A stretch of DNA of 26,541 nt from a virus. Numbering within the stretch: the first letter of the stretch is position 1; each line of letters begins with the position of its first letter. Positions 1 through 25,968 of this stretch are shown one piece after another. The position numbers and the translations under genes are program-made. Below the pieces are notes generated by a model. It did no database searches, had not been told where the DNA came from, and saw nothing but the letters and a program-made list of their open reading frames with translations. The stretch spans positions 1 to 26,541 of the IMG/VR virus record IMGVR_UViG_3300035698_026307, one strand, 5' to 3'.

Positions 1-1572
1 TATCGTAAAATTAAGAACAGGCTTCTCCAGATACATACCGCGACTTCTAATGGCTGTTCGTGTCTCCGTACCTTCTCTCGGCTTGTAGGTCCTCTGAACC
101 TGCGTGTACGGTACAATGGTTCCGATAGGCGCATCATCAAGCCCGTCCGGATCGGTTATCTTCACTCTATCGAAAAATGAACGTGCCAATGCTTCCACAT
201 TTCGCTTATGAGTGCCTACACCGTTATCATCAAGAATCCTGGAAAACTGTTTTATGAAATACGCACGCCCTGCTCCGAGACCCTTATACTTTGCGACCTC
301 TGCAGGATTAGGCGTGCCCTCTGTCAAAACATCTCCAGCTTCTACAATATCCCCGCGCTTTACCAGCACTTCGACACCCTGCTTCACATGGATACGCTCA
401 TCATTCACATTGATATAGTGACCCCCCTGCGGCGCAGGGATCACATACTTGACTGTCCCATCCTGCGGCGCAAGCCCGGCCCCTCCCTTGAATCGGCTAG
501 GCACTTGCATGAACCGATTAATCTCCTGAAAACCCGAGACACTGTCATCGTTAGTGCCTACCTGCCCGCCCACATGCTTAGCGCTTAACCCTAGAATTTG
601 CATCAACGGCTCCGCAGTGGCTCTAGCGTTGTCAATTCCAAGGTACGCGCCCTCTGCAGGGAATTTACCGTCCACCTGCCGTCCGGCACATCTCTTGCAT
701 ACCCCCTCAGGCTGCTGGCAGGTAGCCACGGATCGCAGCCATACCTCATCCTTATCCTGAAGTTTGTTGAGGTGTCGGCGCTCTATTACAGTGCCTATAG
801 GAAGCCCTGCTACAGGTTTGGACAACACTTTACCAAGGATGTCCGGATCATCTCCCTGCATATCCATTCCAAGTTCCGAGGCCCCACAGTCATCTCCGGT
901 AACACGTATCCGTTGAGCCATCAACGCCATTTGCTTCCCGAGAAATCCTGTATCCGCTGTAGCAAATTGTACATCAGAAAATCCTTTACGAGACCCATAG
1001 GAATTAGCCCAGTACTCTGCAGGGGTCACCCCTTCCCCGTATCCATGCATACCAGGTATCGGCACCGGTCTTCCCTTATGGTCCGCTACGAGTAGATCAC
1101 CGAACAACATCTGGGTCAGCTGCGCCTGCGACCCCCTGTACCCGTTTCGTATACTTGCTGCAAAAGAGTTGCCTCTGTTAAACGCTTCCTCCTCCACATT
1201 CTTATGGATACGATCGATCGCACCCTTCATCACCTTGACTATCTGTGCATTTTTTTCATGCTTATCCAAGGTGCGGCTCTGGGATATTGCATCAATACGC
1301 GCCTGCAGTGCTTTTCTATATTCCCGTGCCTTTGGAGGAAGGCGCAAGTCATTCTGGCTGACACTGGCCCCCCTTCCATACGTGGTAGCGGTCTCACGCC
1401 CTATATCGTTCAGACGCTGCAGCGTGCTTACATATTCTTCCGGGTCACCCTCCGCAAGCAAAGTGAACAGTGCAGTTATCTCGCGCTTATCAAGAGGCTT
1501 CTCCGGCATCTTCACCCCCGAAGGGAGTGCTGCCGCTACCTGAAGTCTTCCGATTGTGGTCACTGCTGCCAT
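1..1572 (-). CDS. rpoC: RNA polymerase beta' subunit, C-terminal part (partial)
   Basis: The reading frame opens at ATG 1572 and is still open at base 1, giving the first 524 residues. I translated it by hand and it aligns with the C-terminal two thirds of bacterial beta'. It begins TTIGR near the usual TTxGR segment. A YRGSQAQ stretch (about 145-151) matches the GARGSxxQ region. The bridge helix is about 181-206 (GSRKGFSDVQFATADTG). The second zinc site has all four cysteines, C229, C285, C292 and C295, with the classic C-x6-C-x2-C spacing. The trigger loop is about 313-340 and keeps its histidine (KHVGG). The sequence then follows the family into RNVEALARSFFDRVKI. It should complete the active site with the beta-beta'N fusion protein encoded upstream. 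The split point resembles the rpoC1/rpoC2 split of cyanobacteria and plastids. A GAGGG-like ribosome site precedes the start. Confidence 0.93.
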   Translation of the reverse strand, partial: MAAVTTIGRLQVAAALPSGVKMPEKPLDKREITALFTLLAEGDPEEYVSTLQRLNDIGRETATTYGRGASVSQNDLRLPPKAREYRKALQARIDAISQSRTLDKHEKNAQIVKVMKGAIDRIHKNVEEEAFNRGNSFAASIRNGYRGSQAQLTQMLFGDLLVADHKGRPVPIPGMHGYGEGVTPAEYWANSYGSRKGFSDVQFATADTGFLGKQMALMAQRIRVTGDDCGASELGMDMQGDDPDILGKVLSKPVAGLPIGTVIERRHLNKLQDKDEVWLRSVATCQQPEGVCKRCAGRQVDGKFPAEGAYLGIDNARATAEPLMQILGLSAKHVGGQVGTNDDSVSGFQEINRFMQVPSRFKGGAGLAPQDGTVKYVIPAPQGGHYINVNDERIHVKQGVEVLVKRGDIVEAGDVLTEGTPNPAEVAKYKGLGAGRAYFIKQFSRILDDNGVGTHKRNVEALARSFFDRVKITDPDGLDDAPIGTIVPYTQVQRTYKPREGTETRTAIRSRGMYLEKPVLNFTI

Positions 1573-1582
1573 ACACCCTCAT

Positions 1583-1598
1583 GTGCAGATATCTGCAC
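1583..1598. repeat. 16-bp perfect palindrome, copy 1 of 3
   Basis: GTGCAGATATCTGCAC is a perfect inverted repeat filling most of the 26-bp gap between the 251-aa gene and the beta' C-terminal gene. It directly abuts the upstream stop codon and ends 10 bp before the beta' start codon. As RNA it would form a 6-bp GUGCAG/CUGCAC stem with an AUAU loop just ahead of the ribosome site. With flanks it belongs to a 19-bp element also found at 14935 and 22841. Confidence 0.85.
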
Positions 1599-2354
1599 TT
1601 AGTCTTTCCCCTGCAGAAATGCTCTGAAGAACCCTGACGACTGTCCTGCAGGGTCCCTGGGATTTGCCATACGCAGAATATTCCCTATGGCCTCCGAACC
1701 GGCTCTGCCCATTCTTCGAAGTTTACCGCCGCCGCCTTTGTTCCCGGTAAGCATCCTGGAAGCAGGGGCGCCTACTGTACCTACGAGCGTATCAAGCGCA
1801 GCCTTAATGGCCGAGGATGCCTTACCCCCACTTGATAATGGCGAAAGCGTTGTTGCAACATTTCCTAATGATAACACCGGTCTGTTCCCATGTTTGTCGT
1901 CATATTGCTGCGGATTAAACGCCCCATGTATCGCAGAAGGTATGGCCGTTGCACCGTATACTGGAAGCGCTGTGGCAGCTGTGAGACCCCCCAGCCCCTT
2001 TGCCGCCAGCCATCCTGCCCCTGCACCCATTGCACCCACTCCTGCATTATCCCTAGACTCCCGGCCTTCATCCCCCAAGACCATATCTGCAAAGGTCTTC
2101 GTCTTGGACGGCTTTTCCCCTTTAGCTACTGCCTCGTTCTGCTCCTGTGTCTTGTAAGGGTCTTCATTCTTCTGAACAGAGCTAAGGTACCCAGACATAA
2201 CTCCCCCGCCAGCAGCCCCTGCACCTGCCCCCATCAAATACTTCAAGGCACTGCGCCTTTTAGGGTCCTGCATCTCATGCGCCAGAGCAGTCCCGATAAT
2301 AGACATCAGGGGAATTGTCACAAGCTTCGGATCGATATTCTGTGGCAAAGGCAT
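1599..2354 (-). CDS. Gly/Ala-rich putative internal virion protein
   Basis: A 251-aa protein with no family that I recognise. The N-terminus has a weak hydrophobic stretch (LVTIPLMSIIGTALAH). A Gly/Ala segment (GAGAGAAGGGVMSGYL, about 43-58) and a second one (GVGAMGAGAGWLAAKGLGGLTAATALPVYG, about 105-135) look able to insert in membranes or form glycine-zipper helices. The C-terminal third is basic and Gly-rich. It sits between the two parts of the RNA polymerase, 11 bp after the Pro/Gly/Met-rich gene and 26 bp before the beta' C-terminal gene. Composition and position resemble the presumed virion proteins at 8.7-12.7 kb, so a packaged or ejected protein is my inference. A role in polymerase assembly is also possible because of the location. 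Confidence 0.8.
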   Translation of the reverse strand: MPLPQNIDPKLVTIPLMSIIGTALAHEMQDPKRRSALKYLMGAGAGAAGGGVMSGYLSSVQKNEDPYKTQEQNEAVAKGEKPSKTKTFADMVLGDEGRESRDNAGVGAMGAGAGWLAAKGLGGLTAATALPVYGATAIPSAIHGAFNPQQYDDKHGNRPVLSLGNVATTLSPLSSGGKASSAIKAALDTLVGTVGAPASRMLTGNKGGGGKLRRMGRAGSEAIGNILRMANPRDPAGQSSGFFRAFLQGKD

Positions 2355-2365
2355 TGTCTACCCTT

Positions 2366-3199
2366 TCAGCGACGGTCTGTAGTAAGGACACCTGTCCCTT
2401 TGAGCCGCAACATAAGCTGTTGCACTTCCTCAATCTTTTTAGAAGATGCTGCAGCTTCTTTCACTTCGTCTGAGAATCCTTCTCTGACCACGTCCTGCGG
2501 CACCTCTGCACCCGGCATCGCCGCAGGCATTCCGGGAGGTGCTGCGAGCATTTCAGGACCGAGGTCCATAGGCCCCCCTGCCCCGGCAAGTTCTGCAGCA
2601 GCCGCTTCCGCGCCCATTGGGGGAAGGCCCCCTCCACCCATCGGGGGCATGGGCTGAATGCCCATAGCGGACATCATCTGCGCTATCATGTCTTCGATGC
2701 CGTTCATGCGCTCGTCCATGGCAGCCAGGAGCTTCTTGTTCGTGACTCTGCTCACCTCTTCCTCCTTCTCAGGAGGCTCTACGGCGGAAGGGGGCGCTGC
2801 CTCTGCACCTACGCCTGCCTGAGCAAGCATATCGGAGACAATCATCTGGAGATCCTCCAGATTCAATGTCACAGGCGTACCTCCGGGGGGTGGTGCCATT
2901 CCTGCGTCTGCTCCAGGAGGAGGCGGTCCCATCATATCAGGAGGCACTGTTGCAGGCATCCCCATCGCTGCAGGATCACCACCTGGGGGAGGCATAGGCA
3001 TCCCCATCGCTGCAGGATCACCACCTGGGGGAGGCATAGGCATCCCACCACCGGGCATCGGGGGCGCCCCTGGAGGCATAGGCATCCCACCACCTGCAGC
3101 CGCCATCGGGTCACCGCCAGGAGGAGGTCCTGGGGGCACAAATGCCACTTTCTCCTGACCGGCTACCGGAGGTACGCCTCTGATTGTAATCTTCTGCAT
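2366..3199 (-). CDS. Pro/Gly/Met-rich low-complexity protein with coiled C-terminus
   Basis: A 277-aa protein. After a short ordered start (MQKITIRGVPP), residues about 25-105 are made of Pro, Gly and Met repeats such as GMPMPPPGGDPAA, encoded in part by a 42-bp exact tandem duplication. A short acidic helix follows (VTLNLEDLQMIVSDMLAQ, about 108-127), then a Lys/Glu-rich helix (EKEEEVSRVTNKKLLAAMDERMNGIEDMIAQMMSAMG), more Pro/Gly/Ala, and a C-terminal amphipathic helix ending in LKGTGVLTTDRR. The ribosome site GAAAGGTG lies 6 bp before ATG 3199. The tail composition resembles the Met/Gly-rich C-terminal region of the portal protein. I know of no family. A flexible linker or scaffold-like virion role is inferred only from composition and neighbours. 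Confidence 0.82.
   Translation of the reverse strand: MQKITIRGVPPVAGQEKVAFVPPGPPPGGDPMAAAGGGMPMPPGAPPMPGGGMPMPPPGGDPAAMGMPMPPPGGDPAAMGMPATVPPDMMGPPPPGADAGMAPPPGGTPVTLNLEDLQMIVSDMLAQAGVGAEAAPPSAVEPPEKEEEVSRVTNKKLLAAMDERMNGIEDMIAQMMSAMGIQPMPPMGGGGLPPMGAEAAAAELAGAGGPMDLGPEMLAAPPGMPAAMPGAEVPQDVVREGFSDEVKEAAASSKKIEEVQQLMLRLKGTGVLTTDRR
2957..3040. repeat. 42-bp exact tandem duplication (two copies)
   Basis: The 42-bp unit at 2957-2998 is repeated exactly at 2999-3040, followed by a diverged partial third unit. It is in frame (14 codons) inside the Pro/Gly/Met-rich gene and encodes two copies of a GMPMPPPGGDPAA-type block. Exact identity suggests a recent duplication by slippage or unequal recombination. 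Confidence 0.9.
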
Positions 3200-3294
3200 C
3201 GGTTGTCACCTTTCAATATGTAGACAAAAGCTGCCGGTCCAGTCCCCAGACCCACAGGTCTGCACAGTGGTACTATACACGGAAAAACTCAATG
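3200..3294 (-). other. Intergenic leader with short hairpin
   Basis: This 95-bp gap lies between the end of the polymerase fusion gene and the next gene, unusually wide for this window. It holds a 6-bp stem, 4-base loop hairpin at 3247-3262 (CAGACC / GGTCTG) with no U-tract, so it is not a standard terminator. A TATAGT hexamer on the minus strand is not matched by a -35 at normal spacing. It may carry a phage-specific promoter or an RNA processing site, but nothing here proves that. Confidence 0.35.
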
Positions 3295-6200
3295 TTACCC
3301 CACCATGATCGGATCATCTACGCGTATCTCACCTCTTTCATACGCTTTTTGTGCCGCTTCCTCTGTCGGAAAACGCTTAGTGGTCTTTTTTCTATCCGGC
3401 GCTTTTGTAGCAAGCCAGAGGCCCTGAATATACTCGTTTTTCGGTACGTAATGCGGTCTGCCTGACCGCGTACTGTGCAGGTTCTGCTGCGGAAGCATCA
3501 ACTCGTTTGCCTCCTTGACAGCTGCCTTGGATACCGGTACCGAGAAACTCATGATATCCCCGTCGAAGTCCGCATTAAACGGACCGATTACCGACGGGCT
3601 GACCTGAAGCGTATTGCTTTTGACAAGTACCGGCTTAGCCGCCATGATGCTGAACTTATGCAGAGACGGCGCTCTGTTTATCAGAAGCGGTCTGGACGCT
3701 ACAACCCGCTGCAATGCCTCCATAGCGGATGCATCATGCTTGGCGACACTTTTAGCGGCTGTTGTAGCCGGAGCACCTCTCTGCACCATGTCTCTGACAA
3801 TGAAAGGCTCGTACAAATCCCAGGCCAATGCTTCGGGCAGCCCTACCTGATCCAATCTAAGCGAAGGATTGGGTGTAATCACTCCGAGCCCTGTTATATC
3901 CACATTCGCACCGATCAGGCGTCTCTGGACAAACCCCAGCTTAGGTGAGTTTTTACCGAACAACTGCTGTATCACACCGCCTACACGCTTCTGCTGCAGC
4001 TCTTCTTTTTTCGGCGGCTCCATCCCTGTCAGAGCCTTGTATCCGGCATAAATGTCACTGCGCGCCGCAGTCCGTACACCCTCAGGCAAATCTTTTGTCT
4101 CTTCGAAATCCTCGATCGTTTCGAGCAGATTCTTGTACATGTAATTCAGGTCGGACACCATTGTCAAACTGCTCTGCCGGGTGATCGGCCTATATCTCGG
4201 AGGAAGCACCGGTACACGTGTCATCATAAAGTCTGAAGGCGTCATGCCCTGCTTCTGCAATGCTGATAAAAACCCATATCGCTTTACGGCCTTGTCCCTG
4301 TTGCTTTCTGCACCATTAAGGATATCATCCTTTGTCTGAGCCATCAATGCCGGAACATTGAGATTGTCCAGCAGCTCTTTCAATGCAGGTCCACCTCTTT
4401 TGCCCTCTACCTCTTTTTCCCCTGACTGTATGGCCTCCAGCTCCTTCTTTGTAATTCCGAGGATAGACCGTACCGGGTTCTCCATAATAGGATTGAGCAT
4501 AGGTTCAGGAAGCTGGATATATGCCCATTTGTCCCCATTCGCCTTCGACCCTGTCATCTCAGGATCGAACAGGCCTCCTACAACAGGTGCCAGTGTCGTT
4601 CCGCTGAATGTTCCTGGATTTACTATGCGTCGATTGCCTGTGAGACCTTCCGCCTCTTTATTCGTCATGGCAAACAGACTGTCCCCCTCAGCTTTCTTGT
4701 TGATATTCACACCTGATGCACGTATCAGGTCTTCGAACTTCTCATAGACAAACGGGGTCTTCGGCATGGAAGGGGTCTGCCCGAGGCGTATCTGCCTCCA
4801 AAACTCGTTGTTCCTCTGACCTTTGATCAGCTTCAGGTCCTTAATCACATTGTCCGCACCATGTGCCAGGAGCGCTTGCCATTCCATGTCCCCAAAATGC
4901 TTCGCGCCAGTGCTTCCGCCTCTGCTCGGCTGCTCCTCCTGGGTGTACCCTGCAACAGCTCTGGACTTTGCTTTCGAATCCGCCATCTGACTGAACTTAT
5001 AGAAGTATGCATTACCTGTGTATATCCCGTCAACATTCTTCTTTGAATCCGGGTCGAACAGCGTCTCCGTATCTTTGAGGTTGTTGGCCTTCAGCTCCCG
5101 ATCAACAAAATCGTTCATGTCCTCGTCCATGAACCCCGGTATCGTATAAGGCCTTCCCCGCTTCTTCGCAGCCTTGCCAAGCTGAGCTTCATGGAGCTGT
5201 ATGTTATTCGTACGTGTCAAGACCCCCAAATGGCTCAGCAGGATCTCCATAGGCAGTCCTTTTTCGTTACGCGGCATCTCATCATCAGGGACGATTAAAG
5301 AGATCGTCCCCTTATTCCCGTAACGCCCGGCCATTTTATCTCCGACCTGCATCGGTGAGTTGGCCCTTGCATAAATAGATATGCCACTGCGGGTCTTCTC
5401 AGCATCGGTAACTACGCCCGGTACCTGATGCTTCCACGTTACAGCCTCATTGCGTATAGAACGCCGTCCCATGGAGCTGAGAGTGGGTTCTCTTTCACGA
5501 ATGGCGAGCACCATAGGATCTCCGTATTGAAGCACGGTTCCAGGCTTAGCCATCCCTGTGCCGTCTATGGTCTCAAGCTGTTTCTTGGTAAACTCGGCAG
5601 GGAATGCATTTACGAAAGTTTCCTTACCCTCCCGCATGTCCTCGTCAAGAGTCACATCACTATGGTACATCTGTTCCGATGTTCCGCGCTTCGCGGCACT
5701 CTCGCTAATTACAATAGCGTCTTCAAAGTTGTGCCCCCTCCACGTCATGTATCCTACGCGAAAGTTGGTGCCCAGTGCCAGCTTGCCTTTATCATCCGTG
5801 TAGTTACTCGTGGCAAGCACATCCCCCTTGGCTATCTGCTGCCCTGCCTTGACGGTAGGCATATTCCTGATAGCCGTCTTTCTGGCAAACGGGAAATTGT
5901 CATATAGTTCGTGACGAGTTTCACTACCATCTCGATGTCCTACGGTGATGTGGTCTTTGTAGACAGCCTTTACGATACCTGGCTGCTTCGCCTTGATAGC
6001 GCCTGCAACTTCTGCCAGATCCTCTTCGAGAGGACGTCCTGTCTCCGGTGACTGCGTCTGCACCAGGGGCTGCTCGCGTTTTACCAGCGGCAATGCATTA
6101 CCCGCACCCTTAGCTCCCAGCAGCAGTCGCATTGCTTTAGTGCCACTCTTCCCGGGTACCATGTTGGAACCGGTGCTGAACAGGGAGTCCCCGGAAGATA

Positions 6201-8748
6201 CTTCAAGATCCACTTCATCACGAGGCAGATAGAAGATCCCACGGGAGCGTTCCATAGCCGGTACATACTCTTTACCTGATGCCATAGCTCCTGGGAACGC
6301 GATATTCAGCCCACTAACTTCTTTGGAACTCACCCAGCGCGGACGGTTTGTCCGTGCATCTGTGAACTGCTTATAAAGGTTCCCATCCTTACCGACGGCA
6401 GTACCCTGCGCAAAGTACATGTCCACGCCGATCTTCCTGCTATTACCGCACCAGAAACTGTGACCCTCCCTACTCATCACATACAACAACCCCCCGGGAA
6501 CCGTGGCACAATGTACATCCCCATCGTACCTTTCTATGTAATGCCCGTACCTCTTCAGACCTTCTCTTCCGTAATCTGCAGTTGAACGGCATGTTATGTG
6601 TTTACACGCAGGCCCCTGGCGTATACTGATCAACCACTGCTGTCTGCAGTTACCCGCCAGCATCTTTCTAAAACTTGGAGTGTTTCTCCGACGAATACTG
6701 GCTGTATACCCTAGAGAAAGGGCCAGTTCATGCACATCTAATGCTAATTGGTATGACGTAGTAACCGCCACATACGAAGCACCGCTCTTTCTTTTTTCTT
6801 TGTGGCCATCTCCGGCTAGATATGCATCCAGAAATAGCTTCCGACATTTGCTATCTTGTTCAAACACATAACGCGGTATATTTTTGTCAGCTGCTTTTCC
6901 GAAAGGGAGTAGATAGTATGCTAATTGTTTAGAGTTAACGACGTGCTGTAAATTAGACGCCGTGTAATTCCAGTTAAAAGACATACTGCTCAAGCATTGT
7001 CTAATCGATGCACAATGTTCTGGATTGATGCTTTCCGATTGCGTAATGCTTACCCTATAACACGGGCTATCCGCGTCCCATGTCACATGACCTTCTGCTA
7101 AATACCACCCGAGAAAAGTACACCATGTGCCCATGTGTATGGGGATGCCCTTATCTGTCCGGGGACCTTTTCTAGCCTGCGGGCAGGGTGGTAGCTCAAA
7201 TACATCTGAAGCAGTGCCTCGATTTAATTCACCGGTGCTGGCTAAAAATTTTCTACGCTTACCCAGTGTCTCTGCCGCAAACTCGAAACGAAAAAGTGAC
7301 TTTTTCTTAGCAGGCTTCGTCCACAGTCTATGATTAGGGGTGACCAGATAGCTCAGCTTCTTTGCCTTCAAGCCTATCATAGGCCCGGCGTATGCTTGAT
7401 GTACCACACCTTCAGGCAAGCAGAATGTTGGCTTGCCGTCTACATTGCACAAAAAACGATCTTTATCTGTGACATCTTCCCAAGCCTTCCAACCGTCATA
7501 AGTCATTACGTAAGAGCCACTTGGGTAACATTCCGGAGCTCTTACTGGGTCCAGGAAACCCATGTAGCTCGGCTGAACATTTCTTGCCTCGCGGGGGATG
7601 CTATCCACAGAACTCATTGCGCCTTCACCGGTACGGACAAGCCGCTGGTTCTGATCATGTAACTGCAGCGGGTTAATGCTCTCAACTGCCTGCGCCAGCC
7701 CGGCATCTGAGAAAAAATGATCTATATGCGCGTCAAGGATACCCGGCTGCAGCCTATCCAGGTTACCCCTGTTAGTCGCTTTCCACAGCGCCTGCCTGAG
7801 CACTCTATTCTGATCAAATCGAATCTTGTCCTTCAGAAAATCTGCAAAGGAGTGTACACTTTGAAACTCCAGCCCATCCCTGTCATCAGCGTCTTCCGTA
7901 CCTCTGGATACCCCGAGGATACGCTCCGATGCTCTGACCATAGCCTCGGGTGTCACACGCGAATACGGTTTGCCGAATGTCGCTGTTGTCGCATCTTCAT
8001 CCAGCTCAGCCCTGCCGAAGAATTCCGTCAAAGCCTGCGGTGTTGTATCCACATCAGCAGTGGCTGCGGTCTTGTCCAGGAGCTTCGCTTCACGCTCCTG
8101 CCGTTTCTCCATAATGCCCTTCATCCAGCTAATAGCATGCGGTGAATGCTCCACCTGCTTGTTGGCAGCCAGTATATCAGGTCCCCAGCTTTTCGCCATA
8201 GCTTCCTCGGGATGCCCCATACGTCTAAGAACGGGGTACATAGGCACCTTACGTCCCTTAACCCGCATATAGAACACACTGCTGGCAGGGTCCATGAATA
8301 CGCGAAAGTTAGGGCCTGTTCCGGGCTTGGCGTTGAACTGTGTCTCGGTTACCCCGTCATCCCCCACACGGGTGTACGTCCCTGCGGCAAGTCGTGCCTG
8401 ATAGGGAACAGTGTATTCGACACCCTTACGGATAAAGGTACCTCTACGTGTGAGGTACGGAATATTAGCAAGAGTCTTTGCAGGGGTCTGAGAAACTACC
8501 TCCCCTGTTTCACGATCCACCAGGTTCATGCTTCCTACAAGACGCCTTGTCAGGGAAGTGCTCTGAAGTATCGCCCGTTTCTCATCAGCAATACTATAGG
8601 TCTCCGGTCCCTGATACTTCACGCCTCCCAGCTTCAGCTGGAACCTATCGTTCTCTACCGGGAAAGCCTCCTGCGCAGCAGAAGCTGCTTCTTCGAAGAT
8701 CCGTTTTCTTCGAGCATCGTAATCATTCGTAGCTGTGATCGAAGGCAT
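3295..8748 (-). CDS. rpoB-rpoC: RNA polymerase beta / beta' N-terminal fusion with intein
   Basis: An 1817-aa precursor; I chose ATG 8748 with GGAGG 12 bp upstream. A GTG at 8793 would add 15 residues overlapping the previous gene. Beta signatures in order: GTFIRKGVEY (about 103), VRAPE joined to SRKIG (the ETPEGPNIG region, broken by the intein), MTWRGHNFEDAIVISE (about 1001), QVGDKMAGRYGNKGT with the two conserved lysines (about 1134), and the end of beta at KTPFVYEKFEDLIRASGVNI (about 1330-1350). Beta' continues without a break: VPVLPPRYRP, then LINRAPSLHKFSIMA and NADFDGD (bases 3556-3576), which holds the three Mg-binding aspartates. It ends after YVPKNEYIQGLWLAT. The beta' N-terminal zinc-ribbon cysteines are absent. 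Fused beta-beta' is known in Helicobacter and Wolbachia, but here beta' stops at a plastid-like C1/C2 boundary. It presumably transcribes phage genes. Confidence 0.95.
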   Translation of the reverse strand: MPSITATNDYDARRKRIFEEAASAAQEAFPVENDRFQLKLGGVKYQGPETYSIADEKRAILQSTSLTRRLVGSMNLVDRETGEVVSQTPAKTLANIPYLTRRGTFIRKGVEYTVPYQARLAAGTYTRVGDDGVTETQFNAKPGTGPNFRVFMDPASSVFYMRVKGRKVPMYPVLRRMGHPEEAMAKSWGPDILAANKQVEHSPHAISWMKGIMEKRQEREAKLLDKTAATADVDTTPQALTEFFGRAELDEDATTATFGKPYSRVTPEAMVRASERILGVSRGTEDADDRDGLEFQSVHSFADFLKDKIRFDQNRVLRQALWKATNRGNLDRLQPGILDAHIDHFFSDAGLAQAVESINPLQLHDQNQRLVRTGEGAMSSVDSIPREARNVQPSYMGFLDPVRAPECYPSGSYVMTYDGWKAWEDVTDKDRFLCNVDGKPTFCLPEGVVHQAYAGPMIGLKAKKLSYLVTPNHRLWTKPAKKKSLFRFEFAAETLGKRRKFLASTGELNRGTASDVFELPPCPQARKGPRTDKGIPIHMGTWCTFLGWYLAEGHVTWDADSPCYRVSITQSESINPEHCASIRQCLSSMSFNWNYTASNLQHVVNSKQLAYYLLPFGKAADKNIPRYVFEQDSKCRKLFLDAYLAGDGHKEKRKSGASYVAVTTSYQLALDVHELALSLGYTASIRRRNTPSFRKMLAGNCRQQWLISIRQGPACKHITCRSTADYGREGLKRYGHYIERYDGDVHCATVPGGLLYVMSREGHSFWCGNSRKIGVDMYFAQGTAVGKDGNLYKQFTDARTNRPRWVSSKEVSGLNIAFPGAMASGKEYVPAMERSRGIFYLPRDEVDLEVSSGDSLFSTGSNMVPGKSGTKAMRLLLGAKGAGNALPLVKREQPLVQTQSPETGRPLEEDLAEVAGAIKAKQPGIVKAVYKDHITVGHRDGSETRHELYDNFPFARKTAIRNMPTVKAGQQIAKGDVLATSNYTDDKGKLALGTNFRVGYMTWRGHNFEDAIVISESAAKRGTSEQMYHSDVTLDEDMREGKETFVNAFPAEFTKKQLETIDGTGMAKPGTVLQYGDPMVLAIREREPTLSSMGRRSIRNEAVTWKHQVPGVVTDAEKTRSGISIYARANSPMQVGDKMAGRYGNKGTISLIVPDDEMPRNEKGLPMEILLSHLGVLTRTNNIQLHEAQLGKAAKKRGRPYTIPGFMDEDMNDFVDRELKANNLKDTETLFDPDSKKNVDGIYTGNAYFYKFSQMADSKAKSRAVAGYTQEEQPSRGGSTGAKHFGDMEWQALLAHGADNVIKDLKLIKGQRNNEFWRQIRLGQTPSMPKTPFVYEKFEDLIRASGVNINKKAEGDSLFAMTNKEAEGLTGNRRIVNPGTFSGTTLAPVVGGLFDPEMTGSKANGDKWAYIQLPEPMLNPIMENPVRSILGITKKELEAIQSGEKEVEGKRGGPALKELLDNLNVPALMAQTKDDILNGAESNRDKAVKRYGFLSALQKQGMTPSDFMMTRVPVLPPRYRPITRQSSLTMVSDLNYMYKNLLETIEDFEETKDLPEGVRTAARSDIYAGYKALTGMEPPKKEELQQKRVGGVIQQLFGKNSPKLGFVQRRLIGANVDITGLGVITPNPSLRLDQVGLPEALAWDLYEPFIVRDMVQRGAPATTAAKSVAKHDASAMEALQRVVASRPLLINRAPSLHKFSIMAAKPVLVKSNTLQVSPSVIGPFNADFDGDIMSFSVPVSKAAVKEANELMLPQQNLHSTRSGRPHYVPKNEYIQGLWLATKAPDRKKTTKRFPTEEAAQKAYERGEIRVDDPIMVG
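6442..7530 (-). mobile_element. Intein with LAGLIDADG homing endonuclease in beta
   Basis: A 363-residue in-frame insertion. The extein reads VRAPE, then the intein begins CYPSGSYVM and ends SFWCGN, and the extein resumes at SRKIGVDMYF. Block A has Cys1. Block B is LVTPNHRL with the usual Thr and His. Two dodecapeptide helices are present, FLGWYLAEGH (about 560) and FLDAYLAGDGH (about 654, numbering from GTG 8793), with a D-block KNIPRYVF between them. The end has YDGDVHCATVPGGLLYV before the terminal Asn, and the +1 nucleophile is Ser. The residue before the terminal Asn is Gly rather than the common His, a variant I know from other phage inteins. The element should splice itself out of beta, and the endonuclease would cut intein-less alleles. 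The insertion point corresponds to E. coli RpoB E565/G566. Confidence 0.93.
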
Positions 8749-8755
8749 AAGCTGC

Positions 8756-9775
8756 TCAGACCTCCAGCAGTTGCTGCATACCCGGTCCGTCACGGGGGTC
8801 TATCGGAATGTTCTGGCCAGCAGGCGCTTTTTCCGGGGACTGCCTTCCCTTGGCAGAACCCATAAGCCGCTGCATGTATCTGTTGTCGTCCATCACAAGC
8901 ACAGGAGCATCAGTCACCTTCGCCTTGTCTCTGGCGATACGCATCAGACCTTTCTGCCTGATACGCGAAGGGTCGTTGCTATCCATGTACTTCTTCGATG
9001 CGGAATGTGCTACCATTGATGCACCGATGAAGTATACCCAGGCAAGGGCTGCGGCTGCATTGACAGACCCTTTAGGGTCCTTGAAGGGATTCGCCGCAAG
9101 TCCCAGCACAGAGGCTTGAGATACATTCTCATTTTTGGGCTCAGCATCCTTGGAGATCCACTCCGCAAGCTTCGGCATCTCATTGATCCGCTTGTATTCG
9201 TTGAACATCAGCTTATCAATCTCATTCCTTCGCAGGTCTACACGATCTGTGAGCTGTTCCTTGCGCGCCAGATCCGCTTTACGGTCTGCAGCTTTCCAGC
9301 CAGCTGTTCCACCCAAAGCCAGCGCGGCTGTCACAAATGCCAAATGCCTCGGATCATACCTTCCCCGCTGCAGCCTGTGTATGGTCTCTGTGAAAGATGC
9401 AGGGTATTGTCCTGTTTCATCCCGCAGGAACGCAAGGGGGTTCAACCAGTCGTTGGCTATCTCCTTCATTTTGCCCCCTACCTCCCCCATCGTTTCTTTC
9501 CAATCAGCCTGCTTATCCACCTCAGGCAGCGCATCGAATTCAGGTACTCCCGCACCTCTGCGCTTTTTCTCTGTCTTTGCATCCCGGAGACTGGGGTCCA
9601 GGGACAGCACAGGATATCTCGCATTGACATATGACTGCAGCTTATCGTCAGTTCGTGTCTGCTCAGCTGCCTGCGCCTTCAATGCACCCTGCCTGATCAT
9701 ATACAACAACAGGCCCCATCCCATCGCTATGCGACCACTGTGCTGAAGAACCGGGGTAAGCTGATTATCTGACAT
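8756..9775 (-). CDS. Putative membrane-associated virion protein
   Basis: A 339-aa protein with no family that I recognise. Three hydrophobic stretches are visible: about 16-30 (IAMGWGLLLYMI), 144-160 (HLAFVTAALALGGTAGW) and 238-257 (VNAAAALAWVYFIGASMVAH). Between them lie charged helical segments, notably a Lys/Arg/Glu-rich one at about 161-200. The start ATG at 9775 shares one base with the stop of the 116-aa gene (TAATG), with GGAGA upstream. The stop at 8756 lies 7 bp before the polymerase start, so the two are probably translated together. Size, helices and position suggest an internal virion protein that may contact membrane during ejection; this is inference. Confidence 0.8.
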   Translation of the reverse strand: MSDNQLTPVLQHSGRIAMGWGLLLYMIRQGALKAQAAEQTRTDDKLQSYVNARYPVLSLDPSLRDAKTEKKRRGAGVPEFDALPEVDKQADWKETMGEVGGKMKEIANDWLNPLAFLRDETGQYPASFTETIHRLQRGRYDPRHLAFVTAALALGGTAGWKAADRKADLARKEQLTDRVDLRRNEIDKLMFNEYKRINEMPKLAEWISKDAEPKNENVSQASVLGLAANPFKDPKGSVNAAAALAWVYFIGASMVAHSASKKYMDSNDPSRIRQKGLMRIARDKAKVTDAPVLVMDDNRYMQRLMGSAKGRQSPEKAPAGQNIPIDPRDGPGMQQLLEV

Positions 9776-10125
9776 TATCTATCTCCAACAAATGTTCCGG
9801 CAGGGGTGGCTACAGGTTTCCCATAATATACTTCAAACCATCTCAAAAGGATACGCCACCCTTTCAGTCTAAGATCAAAACGACGTTCTTCAAAAGAAAC
9901 AACCGCCCGGCCCATAACCAATTTCTGCGATATCTCTTCATATTCTTTAAGCGACTCGACATCCGTTGTGTCAAACTGTTTCACGTGCACTTTGCGGAGC
10001 ATCGTTGGTTTGAAGTGATCAGGGTCGCTTTCCTTTATGTCTATCGGGGGACCTTCGTACGGGAACCCTTTATACGTACCCTGCACATGCACCGACATTG
10101 TGTCCGAACTGTTTTCATTAGCCAT
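9775..10125 (-). CDS. Hypothetical 116-aa protein
   Basis: A soluble-looking protein with no recognised domain. The N-terminal half is acidic and Ser/Thr/Asp-rich (MSVHVQGTYKGFPYEGPPIDI). The centre has VHVKQFDTTDVESLKEYEEISQ, and the C-terminal half is basic and aromatic (RFDLRLKGWRILLRWFEVYYGKP). ATG 10125 is preceded by an AGGTAA element 6 bp upstream. It follows the 129-aa gene after 27 bp containing a T-tract and is joined to the next gene by a 1-bp overlap. It is one of the few proteins in this cluster without a hydrophobic segment. A tail-completion or head-tail joining role could be considered from size and place, but nothing in the sequence shows it. Confidence 0.75.
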   Translation of the reverse strand: MANENSSDTMSVHVQGTYKGFPYEGPPIDIKESDPDHFKPTMLRKVHVKQFDTTDVESLKEYEEISQKLVMGRAVVSFEERRFDLRLKGWRILLRWFEVYYGKPVATPAGTFVGDR

Positions 10126-10136
10126 ATCTATTACCT

Positions 10137-10161
10137 AAAAAAAGACAGGGGATCAGGCCCC
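10137..10161 (-). terminator. Possible weak intrinsic terminator
   Basis: On the minus strand a GGGG / CCCC stem with a 6-base loop (10148-10161) is followed 4 bases later by seven T (10143-10137). The stop codon of the 129-aa gene lies across the loop. The stem is only 4 bp and the spacer is long, so any termination would be partial. Confidence 0.25.
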
Positions 10162-10542
10162 ATGAATACTGCGTACCGGATTCGCCGCTGCCCTCTCACG
10201 ATCCCTCTGATGCTCAATAGCAAGCGCTCTTTTACGTTTCAGCTCCGCTGCAAACTCTTCAAGCTCTGCAGCCAGGATTGCCTTCTGTATCCCCTCCTGG
10301 TCCAGCTTACTGGGGGATGTCAGCTTGGAATGCATTGCCCCCGTAGCAAGCCCCAATAGGGCAGGGGCCAGGATTGCCGTAGGCAGCACATAGCTATTTA
10401 TAGTGTCCTGCGCAACATCAGCCGCACCTGTAACCACTTCAGCCCCGCCGCCGAGCGCTCCGCTGAGCGCCTCACCCCACCCCCCAGCCTCTTTGAAAAA
10501 CGCATGGGTAAACCCCTGCAGCATTGGTGTCTTAAAATACAT
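10153..10542 (-). CDS. Small virion-like protein with N-terminal FxxxFFKEA motif
   Basis: A 129-aa protein beginning MYFKTPMLQGFTHAFFKEAGG, related to the start motif found at 25968, 12718 and 11853. A Gly/Ala-rich stretch follows (ALSGALGGGAEVVTGAADVAQ), then a hydrophobic helix (VLPTAILAPALLGLATGAM, about 52-70), then a charged Lys/Arg/Glu helix (about 83-118) that may form a coiled coil. GGAGG lies 7 bp before ATG 10542 and overlaps the end of the 112-aa gene, whose TAG directly precedes the start. I infer a packaged internal or inner-membrane-active protein. No family is recognised. Confidence 0.8.
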   Translation of the reverse strand: MYFKTPMLQGFTHAFFKEAGGWGEALSGALGGGAEVVTGAADVAQDTINSYVLPTAILAPALLGLATGAMHSKLTSPSKLDQEGIQKAILAAELEEFAAELKRKRALAIEHQRDRERAAANPVRSIHGA

Positions 10543-11292: not shown

Positions 11293-11853
11293 TCACTGAC
11301 GTAGTCTGTACGCGTACGGTGCCTGAGGAGTAGTCGCACCCGCAGCCGGTCGCGGATTGAGCTTACCCAGTCTCTGATATATCTGCCGGAGTTTGTGTGC
11401 ATTCATGGCGTTAAAGCCCATACTCATCAAAGGAAGGCCCACCAGTCCTGCTCCTACGCCTATACCTGCGGTGCGCATCTTCTGCATATTCTCTGGCGTC
11501 ATAAACTGACTGATATTCTTTATAATAGGGCTTACCCTATCCCACCAATCATTAGTCGCCCGCAAATGCTTGTAGGACCGCTCCGCTTCATGTGCCACAC
11601 CTTTTACGCCCGTGATCCCAGTGTCTGCAACCCTGCCTACACGCTTCCCGGCTCGAACCATAGGACTGTGCTCGGGGGTTTGCGCCGCCTGAAAATCAGG
11701 CATTCCGGGTATCATCCCTAGTGCTGTATTCTTAGCACCACCCAGCAAAGAGTTATCTGCAGACCGATTGCCCTTCGGCCCTACAAAGTCAAAGGCCTCT
11801 TTGGACATATAACCCGTCATGAATGCACGGGCGTTAATAGGTATATCCGCCAT
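11293..11853 (-). CDS. Virion-like protein with N-terminal ARAFMTGYMSKEA motif
   Basis: A 186-aa protein from ATG 11853, which has GGAGG 5 bp upstream and sits 1 bp after the upstream stop; the longer reading to 11931 would overlap the previous gene. The start reads MADIPINARAFMTGYMSKEAF, closely matching the start of the zincin-like protein at 25968 (NTRAYIAGYMYKGA). The middle is polar and basic. The C-terminal third has a hydrophobic segment (AGIGVGAGLVGLPLMSMGFNAMNA) and a basic tail. The shared N-terminus between otherwise unrelated proteins suggests a targeting or processing signal, probably for packaging in the head. That is inference; no family is recognised. Confidence 0.8.
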   Translation of the reverse strand: MADIPINARAFMTGYMSKEAFDFVGPKGNRSADNSLLGGAKNTALGMIPGMPDFQAAQTPEHSPMVRAGKRVGRVADTGITGVKGVAHEAERSYKHLRATNDWWDRVSPIIKNISQFMTPENMQKMRTAGIGVGAGLVGLPLMSMGFNAMNAHKLRQIYQRLGKLNPRPAAGATTPQAPYAYRLRQ

Positions 11854-11854
11854 A

Positions 11855-12718
11855 TCAACCTCCGTTGAAAGAGCTGTCAAACGGCTCTTCAACCTTAGTC
11901 GTAGTGATTCGCGTAGGCATCTTGGGCGCACCTCCCTGATCAGTTCTCACATCAGGAGGAAGATCCTGACCTGTTGCCCGCCCTTCTGCAGCCGCTGCAG
12001 CCGCTGCTGCAACTGCCGGGTTACCCACAGCTTGCGTCTTCTCCGCCTCATTCTGCGGCTGCGGCCCAGGCACTGCAGGCGACCCTACATTCGCAGGAAC
12101 CTTCGGTGAGGCACCTCCTGCATTGGCATCTACGCGTTCCTGCAGCTCAGTAGCCGCTACGGTCTCTGCTCCGGTATTCACAGGTGCCGGTGGCTCGGGC
12201 TGAGGCGCCTCCATAGCCTTTGCCGCCGCATCCTGATTCTGGCTCACAAGCCTTTTGACATTCCAGCGCATCACGCCTTTACTGATCCAGTCTCTCACGG
12301 TCGTCCAGGCTTTCTGCACTTCCTTCGCATCTCCGAACAGTGTCTGCGCCACAAATGCCACAAGAGCTCCAACTGCTCCTCCCATCACAGCACCTTCACG
12401 CCCTGCTATGGCCGCTCCGATACCTGCACCTACACCGCCTCCGCCCAGTGTCATGGTACCGGCCTGTACCGCAGCACTGTCAAAGAAATCCAAAATCCCC
12501 TGTTCTCTGCCCATCAGGCGTTCGACCTGTTCCCGGCTGGGCTGATTGGCCTGAAACCCCGGAATATCCTTGCCGTACGTTTTTCCCAAATCCTCCAGCC
12601 TTGTCTTCCATGGGGGTACCTGCTTCTGCGCAACACGGGTTGCGAGCTCTTCCGCAGCTGTAGGCGCCGCCTGTTTGAAGAAACCTTCAACAAATCCATC
12701 CCATGTATGTACGTCCAT
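11855..12718 (-). CDS. Putative internal virion protein with glycine zipper
   Basis: A 287-aa protein. The start MDVHTWDGFVEGFFKQAAP carries the F-x-x-G-F-F-K-x-A form of the shared motif. Residues about 91-128 form a Gly/Ala-rich hydrophobic block (GGGGVGAGIGAAIAG, then MGGAVGALVAFVAQTLFG), a typical glycine-zipper or membrane-spanning hairpin. Residues about 160-287 are disordered, Pro/Ala/Glu-rich, with an eight-alanine run near 240. It starts 7 bp after the portal stop with GAGGG upstream. Such architecture is common in proteins ejected with phage DNA or lining the portal vestibule, which is my inference from position next to portal. No conserved enzymatic motif is visible. Confidence 0.82.
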   Translation of the reverse strand: MDVHTWDGFVEGFFKQAAPTAAEELATRVAQKQVPPWKTRLEDLGKTYGKDIPGFQANQPSREQVERLMGREQGILDFFDSAAVQAGTMTLGGGGVGAGIGAAIAGREGAVMGGAVGALVAFVAQTLFGDAKEVQKAWTTVRDWISKGVMRWNVKRLVSQNQDAAAKAMEAPQPEPPAPVNTGAETVAATELQERVDANAGGASPKVPANVGSPAVPGPQPQNEAEKTQAVGNPAVAAAAAAAAEGRATGQDLPPDVRTDQGGAPKMPTRITTTKVEEPFDSSFNGG

Positions 12719-25077: not shown

Positions 25078-25968
25078 CTACTCCGCTGTATGCATATCCA
25101 TCCACTGTTTGTACATCTTATTCAGGATGTTAGGATCACGCTTAAACCGGGGATAACCTGTAGGAAGTTTCCCATCCGCCCTCACTCCTCTGAGGCGCTG
25201 CATCCACTGCTCAATGGCGTTGATATCCTTAGCATTGTCCCCCGTAAGCTGCGGCCCGTGCTTTTCCATATGCCGGTATACCCATGGCACTGTTTTGCCC
25301 TGCCTCCGCATGGCCTGCGGGTAGCGTCCCGCAAGTGTTTCCGTAACCATGGCAGGTATCTCGGGTTCCTTGTTCGTGTTGTATCTTAATGCAGGTACAT
25401 AGAACGAAGGATCTACATAATGCGCATACTCATGTAACGCTATCTGCCGCCCTCCCGGCACATTTGGTTTAGGTACCTCTATGCTTCTACGCTTCGCGCT
25501 ACTGCTGCCGGGAAGTGCCACGCCAGACTTAAAAGGGTCCCTCAAAGTGATAAACTTTGCTTTCGGGTGCTTATCCTCGATACTTCTCATCAGATCCGTT
25601 GTCACAGGGGTTGGGTCTCCTGGAATAAGCTTAGAAGCGTTAGCCGCTATCGTGCTGTCCACTGCTTTAACATACTTCCCCCGATCTGCACCTGTGTATG
25701 TCTTCTTCCTATTCTCCATCATAGACCTGTAACGGACATACTGATCAAACAGAGCCCTTGGGAAAAGCGGATTGGACTTATTGTATGCCTTATATGTAGC
25801 GGCCACGCGTGGATGAATGTCTTTACTTTTACTATATTCCGGAAGGCCTTCCATGATATTGGTCCGCGTAGACGCTACGTCCGGATGCATGGAAGGGATC
25901 GTCAGATCCGTGCCCCACCAACCTGCTCCCTTGTACATATACCCTGCTATGTAAGCTCTTGTATTCAT
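25078..25968 (-). CDS. Zincin-like metallopeptidase with virion-type N-terminus
   Basis: A 296-aa protein. The start MNTRAYIAGYMYKGAGWWG matches the motif seen on presumed virion proteins. A HExxH site is present: GGRQIALHEYAHYVDPSF, with H179, E180 and H183. A helix with EIPAMVTETLAGRYPQAMRR follows about 25 residues later; E210 is a good candidate for the third zinc ligand, as in gluzincins. The rest is basic and Tyr/Pro-rich. If active it would cut peptide bonds with a bound zinc, perhaps maturing head proteins or acting on host protein after ejection. Its ATG overlaps the previous stop by one base and has no strong ribosome site, so translation is probably coupled. I could not find a signal peptide. 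Confidence 0.75.
   Translation of the reverse strand: MNTRAYIAGYMYKGAGWWGTDLTIPSMHPDVASTRTNIMEGLPEYSKSKDIHPRVAATYKAYNKSNPLFPRALFDQYVRYRSMMENRKKTYTGADRGKYVKAVDSTIAANASKLIPGDPTPVTTDLMRSIEDKHPKAKFITLRDPFKSGVALPGSSSAKRRSIEVPKPNVPGGRQIALHEYAHYVDPSFYVPALRYNTNKEPEIPAMVTETLAGRYPQAMRRQGKTVPWVYRHMEKHGPQLTGDNAKDINAIEQWMQRLRGVRADGKLPTGYPRFKRDPNILNKMYKQWMDMHTAE

What the first reader, a model, noticed from the sequence alone, without database searches (positions are those of the whole stretch)
1..8748. Beta fused to beta' N-terminus, with beta' C-terminus split off as a second gene
The catalytic NADFDGD is on the same chain as all of beta, while the bridge helix, trigger loop and second zinc site are on another. 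Fused rpoB-rpoC and split rpoC (C1/C2) are each known in cellular lineages. The phiKZ-type phages split both subunits differently as far as I recall. The combination here is unusual and would assemble an active centre from two chains.
Basis: partly seen in the sequence, partly recalled or inferred. Interest (0 to 1): 0.75.

Follow-up and report, generated by a model that had tools for sequence, protein, structure and literature searches.

The report
Fused-and-split phage RNA polymerase with intein
This virus of bacteria makes its own RNA polymerase from one chain that joins the whole beta subunit to the first half of beta-prime and a second chain with the rest; the arrangement is shared by a whole group of large phages that seem to descend from phages with a one-piece polymerase, and in this phage the big chain is also interrupted by a protein-splicing intein.

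Summary
Window 3295-8748 (-) encodes beta fused to the N-terminal half of beta-prime, up to just past NADFDGD. A separate gene at 1-1572 (-), cut by the contig end, encodes beta-prime C (bridge helix, trigger loop, second zinc site).

It is neither a misassembly nor unique. Cultured Salmonella phage Arash and Vibrio phages D69/D148/D181 share it, as do dozens of IMG/VR contigs. All 20 long or whole-genome records searched had one beta-prime N frame, one beta-prime C frame and no alpha. In Arash the two chains are among the most abundant virion proteins, so a virion RNAP is likely.

Trees place the architecture as one clade (SH-aLRT 98-99) inside phage RNAPs that are otherwise single-chain beta-beta' fusions of about 2000-2400 aa. 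The best reading is an old full fusion with loss of the N-terminal beta-prime zinc ribbon, then one secondary split after the catalytic barrel. I found no published description of the single-chain or fused/split state in the papers held. It is a new variant of a known kind.

The parts
3295..8748 (-). beta fused to beta-prime N, 1817-aa precursor (1454 aa without the intein)
   Evidence: same gene in Arash gp206 and D69_0261
7531..8748 (-). N-extein: N-terminal part of beta (residues 1-406, ends ...DPVRAPE)
6442..7530 (-). intein, 363 aa, C1...GN363 then Ser; LAGLIDADG endonuclease; in the fork motif corresponding to E. coli TPE^GPNIG
   Evidence: absent in Arash and D69; LAGLIDADG_3 3.2e-10; fold match to VMA inteins, 2.6e-14
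4714..6441 (-). C-terminal half of beta with the beta double-psi barrel (GDKMAGRYGNKG at 5308-5343)
4579..4713 (-). approximate junction/linker between beta C-terminus and beta-prime N; the beta-prime N-terminal zinc ribbon is missing
   Evidence: block-mean pLDDT 70-94 in the model
3298..4578 (-). beta-prime N with catalytic NADFDGD (3556-3576); chain ends at about E. coli beta-prime 551
1..1572 (-). beta-prime C chain (bridge helix about 1078-1185, trigger-loop His at 574-576, zinc-2 cysteines); truncated by the contig end
12726..14642 (-). portal protein homologue upstream of the RNAP, as in Arash and relatives
   Evidence: E 1e-59 with Arash gp204; 30 of the relative loci examined
9775..10125 (-). 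small gene shared with a gene just upstream of the RNAP in relatives

Best explanation
This is the core of a phage-encoded, alpha-less double-psi-barrel DNA-dependent RNA polymerase made of two chains. Chain A (beta + beta-prime N) is made as an 1817-aa precursor. The intein should excise itself and join TPE to Ser inside the fork region, giving about 1454 aa. Chain A carries both catalytic barrels: the beta lysines of GDKxxGRxGNKG and the beta-prime aspartates of NADFDGD. Chain B (beta-prime C, about 600 aa in relatives) adds the bridge helix, trigger loop and zinc-2 module, so the active centre closes only when A and B dock. Joining beta to beta-prime in cis probably replaces the alpha dimer as assembly scaffold. 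By analogy with Arash, the enzyme is probably packed in the virion and injected to transcribe early genes. Evolution: beta and beta-prime fused once in a phage ancestor with loss of the N-terminal beta-prime zinc ribbon, giving a single-chain enzyme; one descendant lineage then split beta-prime after the barrel. Shown: gene architecture, conserved residues, intein anatomy, clade, absence of alpha in relatives' records. Inferred: splicing, assembly, virion role, order of events.
For: Domain and PDB matches. Alignment with Arash and D69. AlphaFold model of the C-extein, pLDDT 86, best PDB matches RNAP beta. Relatives: fused + split in dozens of contigs; one beta-prime N frame and one beta-prime C frame per record, 20/20; no alpha in 20/20 and 10/10. 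Single-chain relatives of 2044-2391 aa, one PF04998 frame each, in records up to 193 kb. Trees: two-chain clade 0.99 and 98-99*; single-chain rows as one clade rejected, p-AU 0.00014. Zinc ribbon lost in window, Arash and three single-chain phages, kept in YerA41 and EP_H11. Intein. Virion abundance of Arash gp206 (3516 spectra) and gp216 (1210): PMC10585845.
Against: No expression, splicing or activity data for this phage. The window is a 26.5-kb fragment, so its own genome cannot be searched for a second RNAP. The intein ends in Gly-Asn, not His-Asn. The root among phage RNAPs is weak (0.35; L116 long-branched, 80-89 support). Sigma region 2 was not found in the window-like relatives, so promoter recognition is unexplained. 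The Arash authors note that presence in particles could be carry-over of abundant proteins.
Confidence: 0.8

Rival explanations
1. Non-virion enzyme: the same two-chain RNAP is made only inside the cell for middle/late genes and is not injected.
For: The window itself gives no proteomic data. phiKZ-type phages have a separate non-virion enzyme (PMC7598289).
Against: In Arash both chains are among the top five virion proteins (PMC10585845). The gene sits beside the portal in window and relatives. Only one RNAP set per long record was found.
Confidence: 0.25
2. Pre-cellular modularity: the separate beta-prime pieces are primitive and the single-chain phages are secondary joins, as argued for phiKZ-type enzymes (PMC7824862).
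For: Phage RNAPs branch outside bacterial RNAPs with full support.
Against: Outgroups (bacteria, Carin-5, L106/L110) have an undivided beta-prime. Single-chain rows are paraphyletic to the two-chain clade (p-AU 0.00014). Fewest changes favour fusion then split.
Confidence: 0.08
3. Assembly artefact or decaying gene at 3.3 kb.
For: Single fragment record.
Against: Same architecture at the same split point in cultured Arash and D69 and in dozens of independent contigs. Frames are open and catalytic residues intact.
Confidence: 0.01
4. Recent capture of a fused bacterial rpoBC (as in Helicobacter, Wolbachia or the Omnitrophota MAG L214).
For: NCBIfam rpoBC fusion models are top hits. L214 shows that cellular fusions arise.
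Against: The fused phage RNAPs form their own clade away from bacteria (100*). L214 groups with unfused Omnitrophota.
Confidence: 0.02
5. The 363-aa insert is a dead or non-splicing insertion, so the chain is non-functional or works with the insert in place.
For: Penultimate residue is Gly rather than His. No splicing data.
Against: Cys1, TxxH block, terminal Asn and Ser+1 are kept. Inserts at the same site in L015/L016/L062 and GN-ending inserts at other sites share the pattern. The insert lies in the fork, where it would be expected to block the fold.
Confidence: 0.08

Closest known systems
RNAP of Salmonella phage Arash (gp206 + gp216) and Vibrio phages D69/D148/D181
   Same: Same fused beta-beta'N gene and separate beta'C, same split point (about E. 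coli beta-prime 551/552, measured in Arash), same lost zinc ribbon (Arash), portal upstream
   Different: No intein; 26-33% identity; annotated simply as 'beta' or hypothetical, so the fusion went unremarked in PMC10585845; Arash-like phages encode a sigma-like protein
Single-chain beta-beta' RNAPs of uncultured phages (L065, L101, L112, L116, L150, L171 ...)
   Same: Same clade, same junction, zinc ribbon lost in the three aligned (L065, L101, L171), no alpha found in the records searched
   Different: Beta-prime is not split: one ORF of 2044-2391 aa
mReC RNAPs (Weinheimer and Aylward 2020, PMC7481178)
   Same: Bacterial-like phage beta/beta' branching outside bacteria, from metagenomes, some contigs over 200 kb
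   Different: The text reports beta and beta' subunits and mentions fusion only for crAssphage; whether their contigs include these genes could not be checked
phiKZ/AR9-type virion and non-virion RNAPs (PMC7598289, PMC7824862)
   Same: Alpha-less; beta-prime split after the barrel
   Different: Four to five chains, beta also split, two enzyme sets per phage; here beta is whole and fused, and one set was found per long record of relatives
Cellular rpoBC fusions (Helicobacter, Wolbachia) and cyanobacterial rpoC1/rpoC2
   Same: Beta-beta' tether and a beta-prime split are each tolerated
   Different: Not combined; cells use alpha; the split here lies somewhat upstream of the cyanobacterial one (beta'N ends near rpoC1 model position 551 of 619)

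Membership tests
Double-psi-barrel multisubunit-type RNAP core | beta-prime DxDxD (NADFDGD) and beta GDKxxGRxGNKG lysines | tested here: met
Double-psi-barrel multisubunit-type RNAP core | Bridge helix, trigger loop and second zinc site present | tested here: met
   on the second chain
Double-psi-barrel multisubunit-type RNAP core | Catalytic activity | not testable with these tools
   needs biochemistry
phiKZ/AR9-type jumbo phage RNAP | Beta split into two or more chains | tested here: not met
   beta is in one frame and fused to beta'N
phiKZ/AR9-type jumbo phage RNAP | Two RNAP sets per genome | tested here: not met
   one set per record in 20 long records of relatives; the window's own genome is incomplete
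phiKZ/AR9-type jumbo phage RNAP | No alpha subunit | tested here: met
   0/20 and 0/10 relatives' records
mReC phage RNAP | Phage beta/beta' separate from bacterial RNAPs in a tree | tested here: met
mReC phage RNAP | Groups with the published mReC sequences | not testable with these tools
   contig list not available
Arash-like virion RNAP | Fused beta-beta'N plus beta'C near the portal | tested here: met
Arash-like virion RNAP | Both chains in the virion | not testable with these tools
   known for Arash only (PMC10585845)
LAGLIDADG intein | Cys1, TxxH block, terminal Asn, Ser/Thr/Cys at +1, absent in homologues | tested here: met
LAGLIDADG intein | His before the terminal Asn (common, not universal) | tested here: not met
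   Gly-Asn end
LAGLIDADG intein | Splicing fold with endonuclease | tested here: met
   model pLDDT 74; Foldseek to TliVMA 2.6e-14 and PI-SceI 1.6e-13; global TM-scores are low (about 0.4)
Cellular rpoBC fusion | Complete beta and beta' in one chain | tested here: not met
   beta-prime is split in the window; met in single-chain phage relatives

The most novel reading that the evidence does not exclude
A large, mostly uncultured phage lineage runs on an alpha-less RNA polymerase that was once a single chain (beta-beta', over 2000 aa, N-terminal beta-prime zinc ribbon lost) and was later cut again in one sublineage (window, Arash) just after the catalytic barrel. Split beta-prime would then be shown to arise secondarily, and the gene has become a landing zone for inteins at ten or so active-site motifs.
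Probability: 0.6. Interest if true: 0.7.

Novelty: new variant of a known kind. Interest (0 to 1): 0.58.

Why it matters
A near-minimal cellular-type RNAP that seems to do without alpha and without the N-terminal beta-prime zinc ribbon would be a compact system for asking what those parts are for. The single-chain to two-chain to three-chain series, with cultured members infecting Salmonella and Vibrio, makes the debate over whether split phage RNAPs are primitive or derived directly testable. Incompletely labelled genes such as Arash gp206 ('beta') can also be re-annotated.

Tried and rejected
Single-sequence scan with beta-prime C found nothing; alignments were needed. Misassembly and intact rpoC elsewhere: rejected through relatives. 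Recent bacterial capture: rejected by tree. Apparent splits of the fused gene in Vibrio D181 and L041 are group I introns, not chain splits. The genome-contig scan returned what look like cellular rpoB/rpoC loci; no fused phage relative turned up, only one fused cellular gene. Bacterial sequences filed under phage names (L006, L211, L212, L213) were used only as cellular outgroup. A two-chain complex could not be folded with the tools given.

Full report
OBSERVATION. The window is a 26,541-base IMG/VR virus record, a fragment. On the minus strand, 3295-8748 encodes 1817 aa. Pfam finds Rpb2 domain 6 (5.9e-50), Rpb1 domains 1 and 2, and a LAGLIDADG domain. The frame at 1-1572 matches Rpb1 domain 5 and aligns with mycobacterial beta-prime 663-1178; it is cut by the contig end at aa 524.

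INTEIN. Against Arash and D69 the fused chain has one clean 363-aa insert, residues 407-769, between E406 and S770 in the motif that reads TPE^GPNIG in E. coli (that motif from general knowledge). It starts with Cys, keeps a TPNH block, ends Gly-Asn and is followed by Ser. Relatives L015, L016 and L062 carry inteins at the same site. LAGLIDADG_3 hits at 3.2e-10. An AlphaFold model (pLDDT 74) matches TliVMA and PI-SceI inteins at 2.6e-14 and 1.6e-13, with low global TM-scores. Splicing is inferred. Known eukaryotic RPB2-c and RPC2 inteins also sit in the fork domain (PMC1635734); whether at the same residue was not tested.

RELATIVES. tblastn found the same pair in cultured Salmonella phage Arash (gp206, gp216) and Vibrio phages D69, D148 and D181. 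Scans of viral contigs with alignments brought 39 and 31 loci. Mapping frames to four domain profiles (beta N, beta C, beta-prime N, beta-prime C) shows beta-beta'N in one frame and beta'C in another nearly throughout (several loci are duplicates of one contig). All 20 long records of relatives searched, including complete Arash and D69, have one beta-prime N frame and one beta-prime C frame (one beta-prime C match is below the family cut-off), so no second, intact rpoC was seen. None of the 20 encodes alpha. Sigma region 2 was found in 10 of 20, the Arash-like ones and three others. The variants are informative: in L045, L047, L048, L052, L067, L077, L082 and L084 beta-prime N is cut again near the lost zinc ribbon (three chains), while in D181 and L041 a group I intron, not a chain split, interrupts the fused gene.

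SINGLE-CHAIN PHAGES. Of ten further records searched whole, eight have their only PF04998 match in a frame of 2044-2391 aa; L104 is two-chain and L118 has beta and beta-prime apart. None of the ten has alpha. No cultured phage in the collection has the single-chain form.

TREE. On concatenated beta C, beta-prime N and beta-prime C, two- and three-chain phages form one clade (FastTree 0.99; IQ-TREE SH-aLRT 99*; 98* with 16 more cellular sequences). Single-chain phages lie around it; forcing them (with L118) into one clade is rejected (p-AU 0.00014). Bacteria and phage RNAPs are cleanly apart (100*). With an undivided beta-prime in the outgroups (bacteria, Carin-5, L106, L110), the fewest changes are one fusion, then one split. 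Caveats: L116 is long-branched, L167 unresolved, and the root among phage RNAPs weak. The beta-prime N-terminal zinc ribbon is absent in window, Arash and three single-chain phages but present in YerA41 and EP_H11, which fits one fusion event. The split lies at E. coli beta-prime about 551/552 in both window and Arash, 517/518 in EP_H11 and 674/675 in YerA41 (Salmonella beta-prime was the ruler); relative to the cyanobacterial rpoC1 model the chain ends near position 551 of 619. So split points in this region are not identical, which weakens the use of a split there as evidence of common origin.

FUNCTION. A model of beta core plus beta-prime N (1048 aa, 32 sequences) has pLDDT 86 with a mostly ordered junction and matches bacterial RNAP beta chains. 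Chain A holds both catalytic barrels; chain B must dock for nucleotide addition. In Arash virions gp206 has the most spectra of all proteins and gp216 is fifth (PMC10585845). The gene lies by the portal in Arash, relatives and the window. I therefore favour a virion RNAP, at about 0.6-0.7. The alpha-scaffold replacement is inference.

INTEIN HOT SPOT. Beyond the window's site, inserts with intein-like ends occur at roughly ten positions in the clade: RLLMG^, near beta-C 190, GDKM^, GRHGNKGI^, VISR^, GGKTG^, after DFDGD, GSRKG^, AAQA^ and the trigger-loop region; L056 carries four. These calls rest on junction pattern and, for five inserts (window included), on the LAGLIDADG profile.

LITERATURE. 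The 2020 mReC paper reports phage beta and beta' and mentions fusion only for crAssphage. Reviews describe four- or five-chain phiKZ-type enzymes. Within the papers held I found no account of this fused/split or single-chain state; preprints and most subscription papers were not searchable.

VERDICT. Real, conserved, and informative about RNAP evolution; a new variant of a known kind with precedent in unremarked public genomes.

Noticed in passing
L056 (IMGVR_UViG_3300035698_024002): RNAP genes carry four intein-like inserts (GDKM^, VISR^, after DFDGD, GSRKG^); L057 and near-identical contigs carry three. About ten insertion sites across the clade.
   Followed up: partly
L007 7997-8277 and 4200-4407; L041 11512-11793: Group I introns interrupt the fused RNAP gene of Vibrio phage D181 and of L041 at the same place; a second one lies just upstream of D181's putative portal gene (ORF 4587-6179).
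   Followed up: yes
L214 1240-8997 (JAGYNU010000002.1): A Candidatus Omnitrophota MAG has a 2585-aa rpoB-rpoC fusion in one frame, grouping with unfused Omnitrophota: an independent cellular fusion.
   Followed up: partly
window 10153-10542, 11293-11931, 11855-12718, 25078-25968 (-): Several structural-region proteins start with a shared motif like F..G[FY]..K.A (also L043); possibly a virion-targeting leader. Not seen in the other relatives tested.
   Followed up: partly
L045, L047, L048, L052, L067, L077, L082, L084: Three-chain variants in which beta-prime N is cut again near the lost zinc ribbon, in some with about 3 kb between the pieces; no Rfam intron was found there in L045 or L047.
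   Followed up: partly
phages collection: OR844998, OR846602, CAKLQH020000005, AFYI01000006: Records filed as phages that contain bacterial rpoB/rpoC, apparently host contamination.
   Followed up: no
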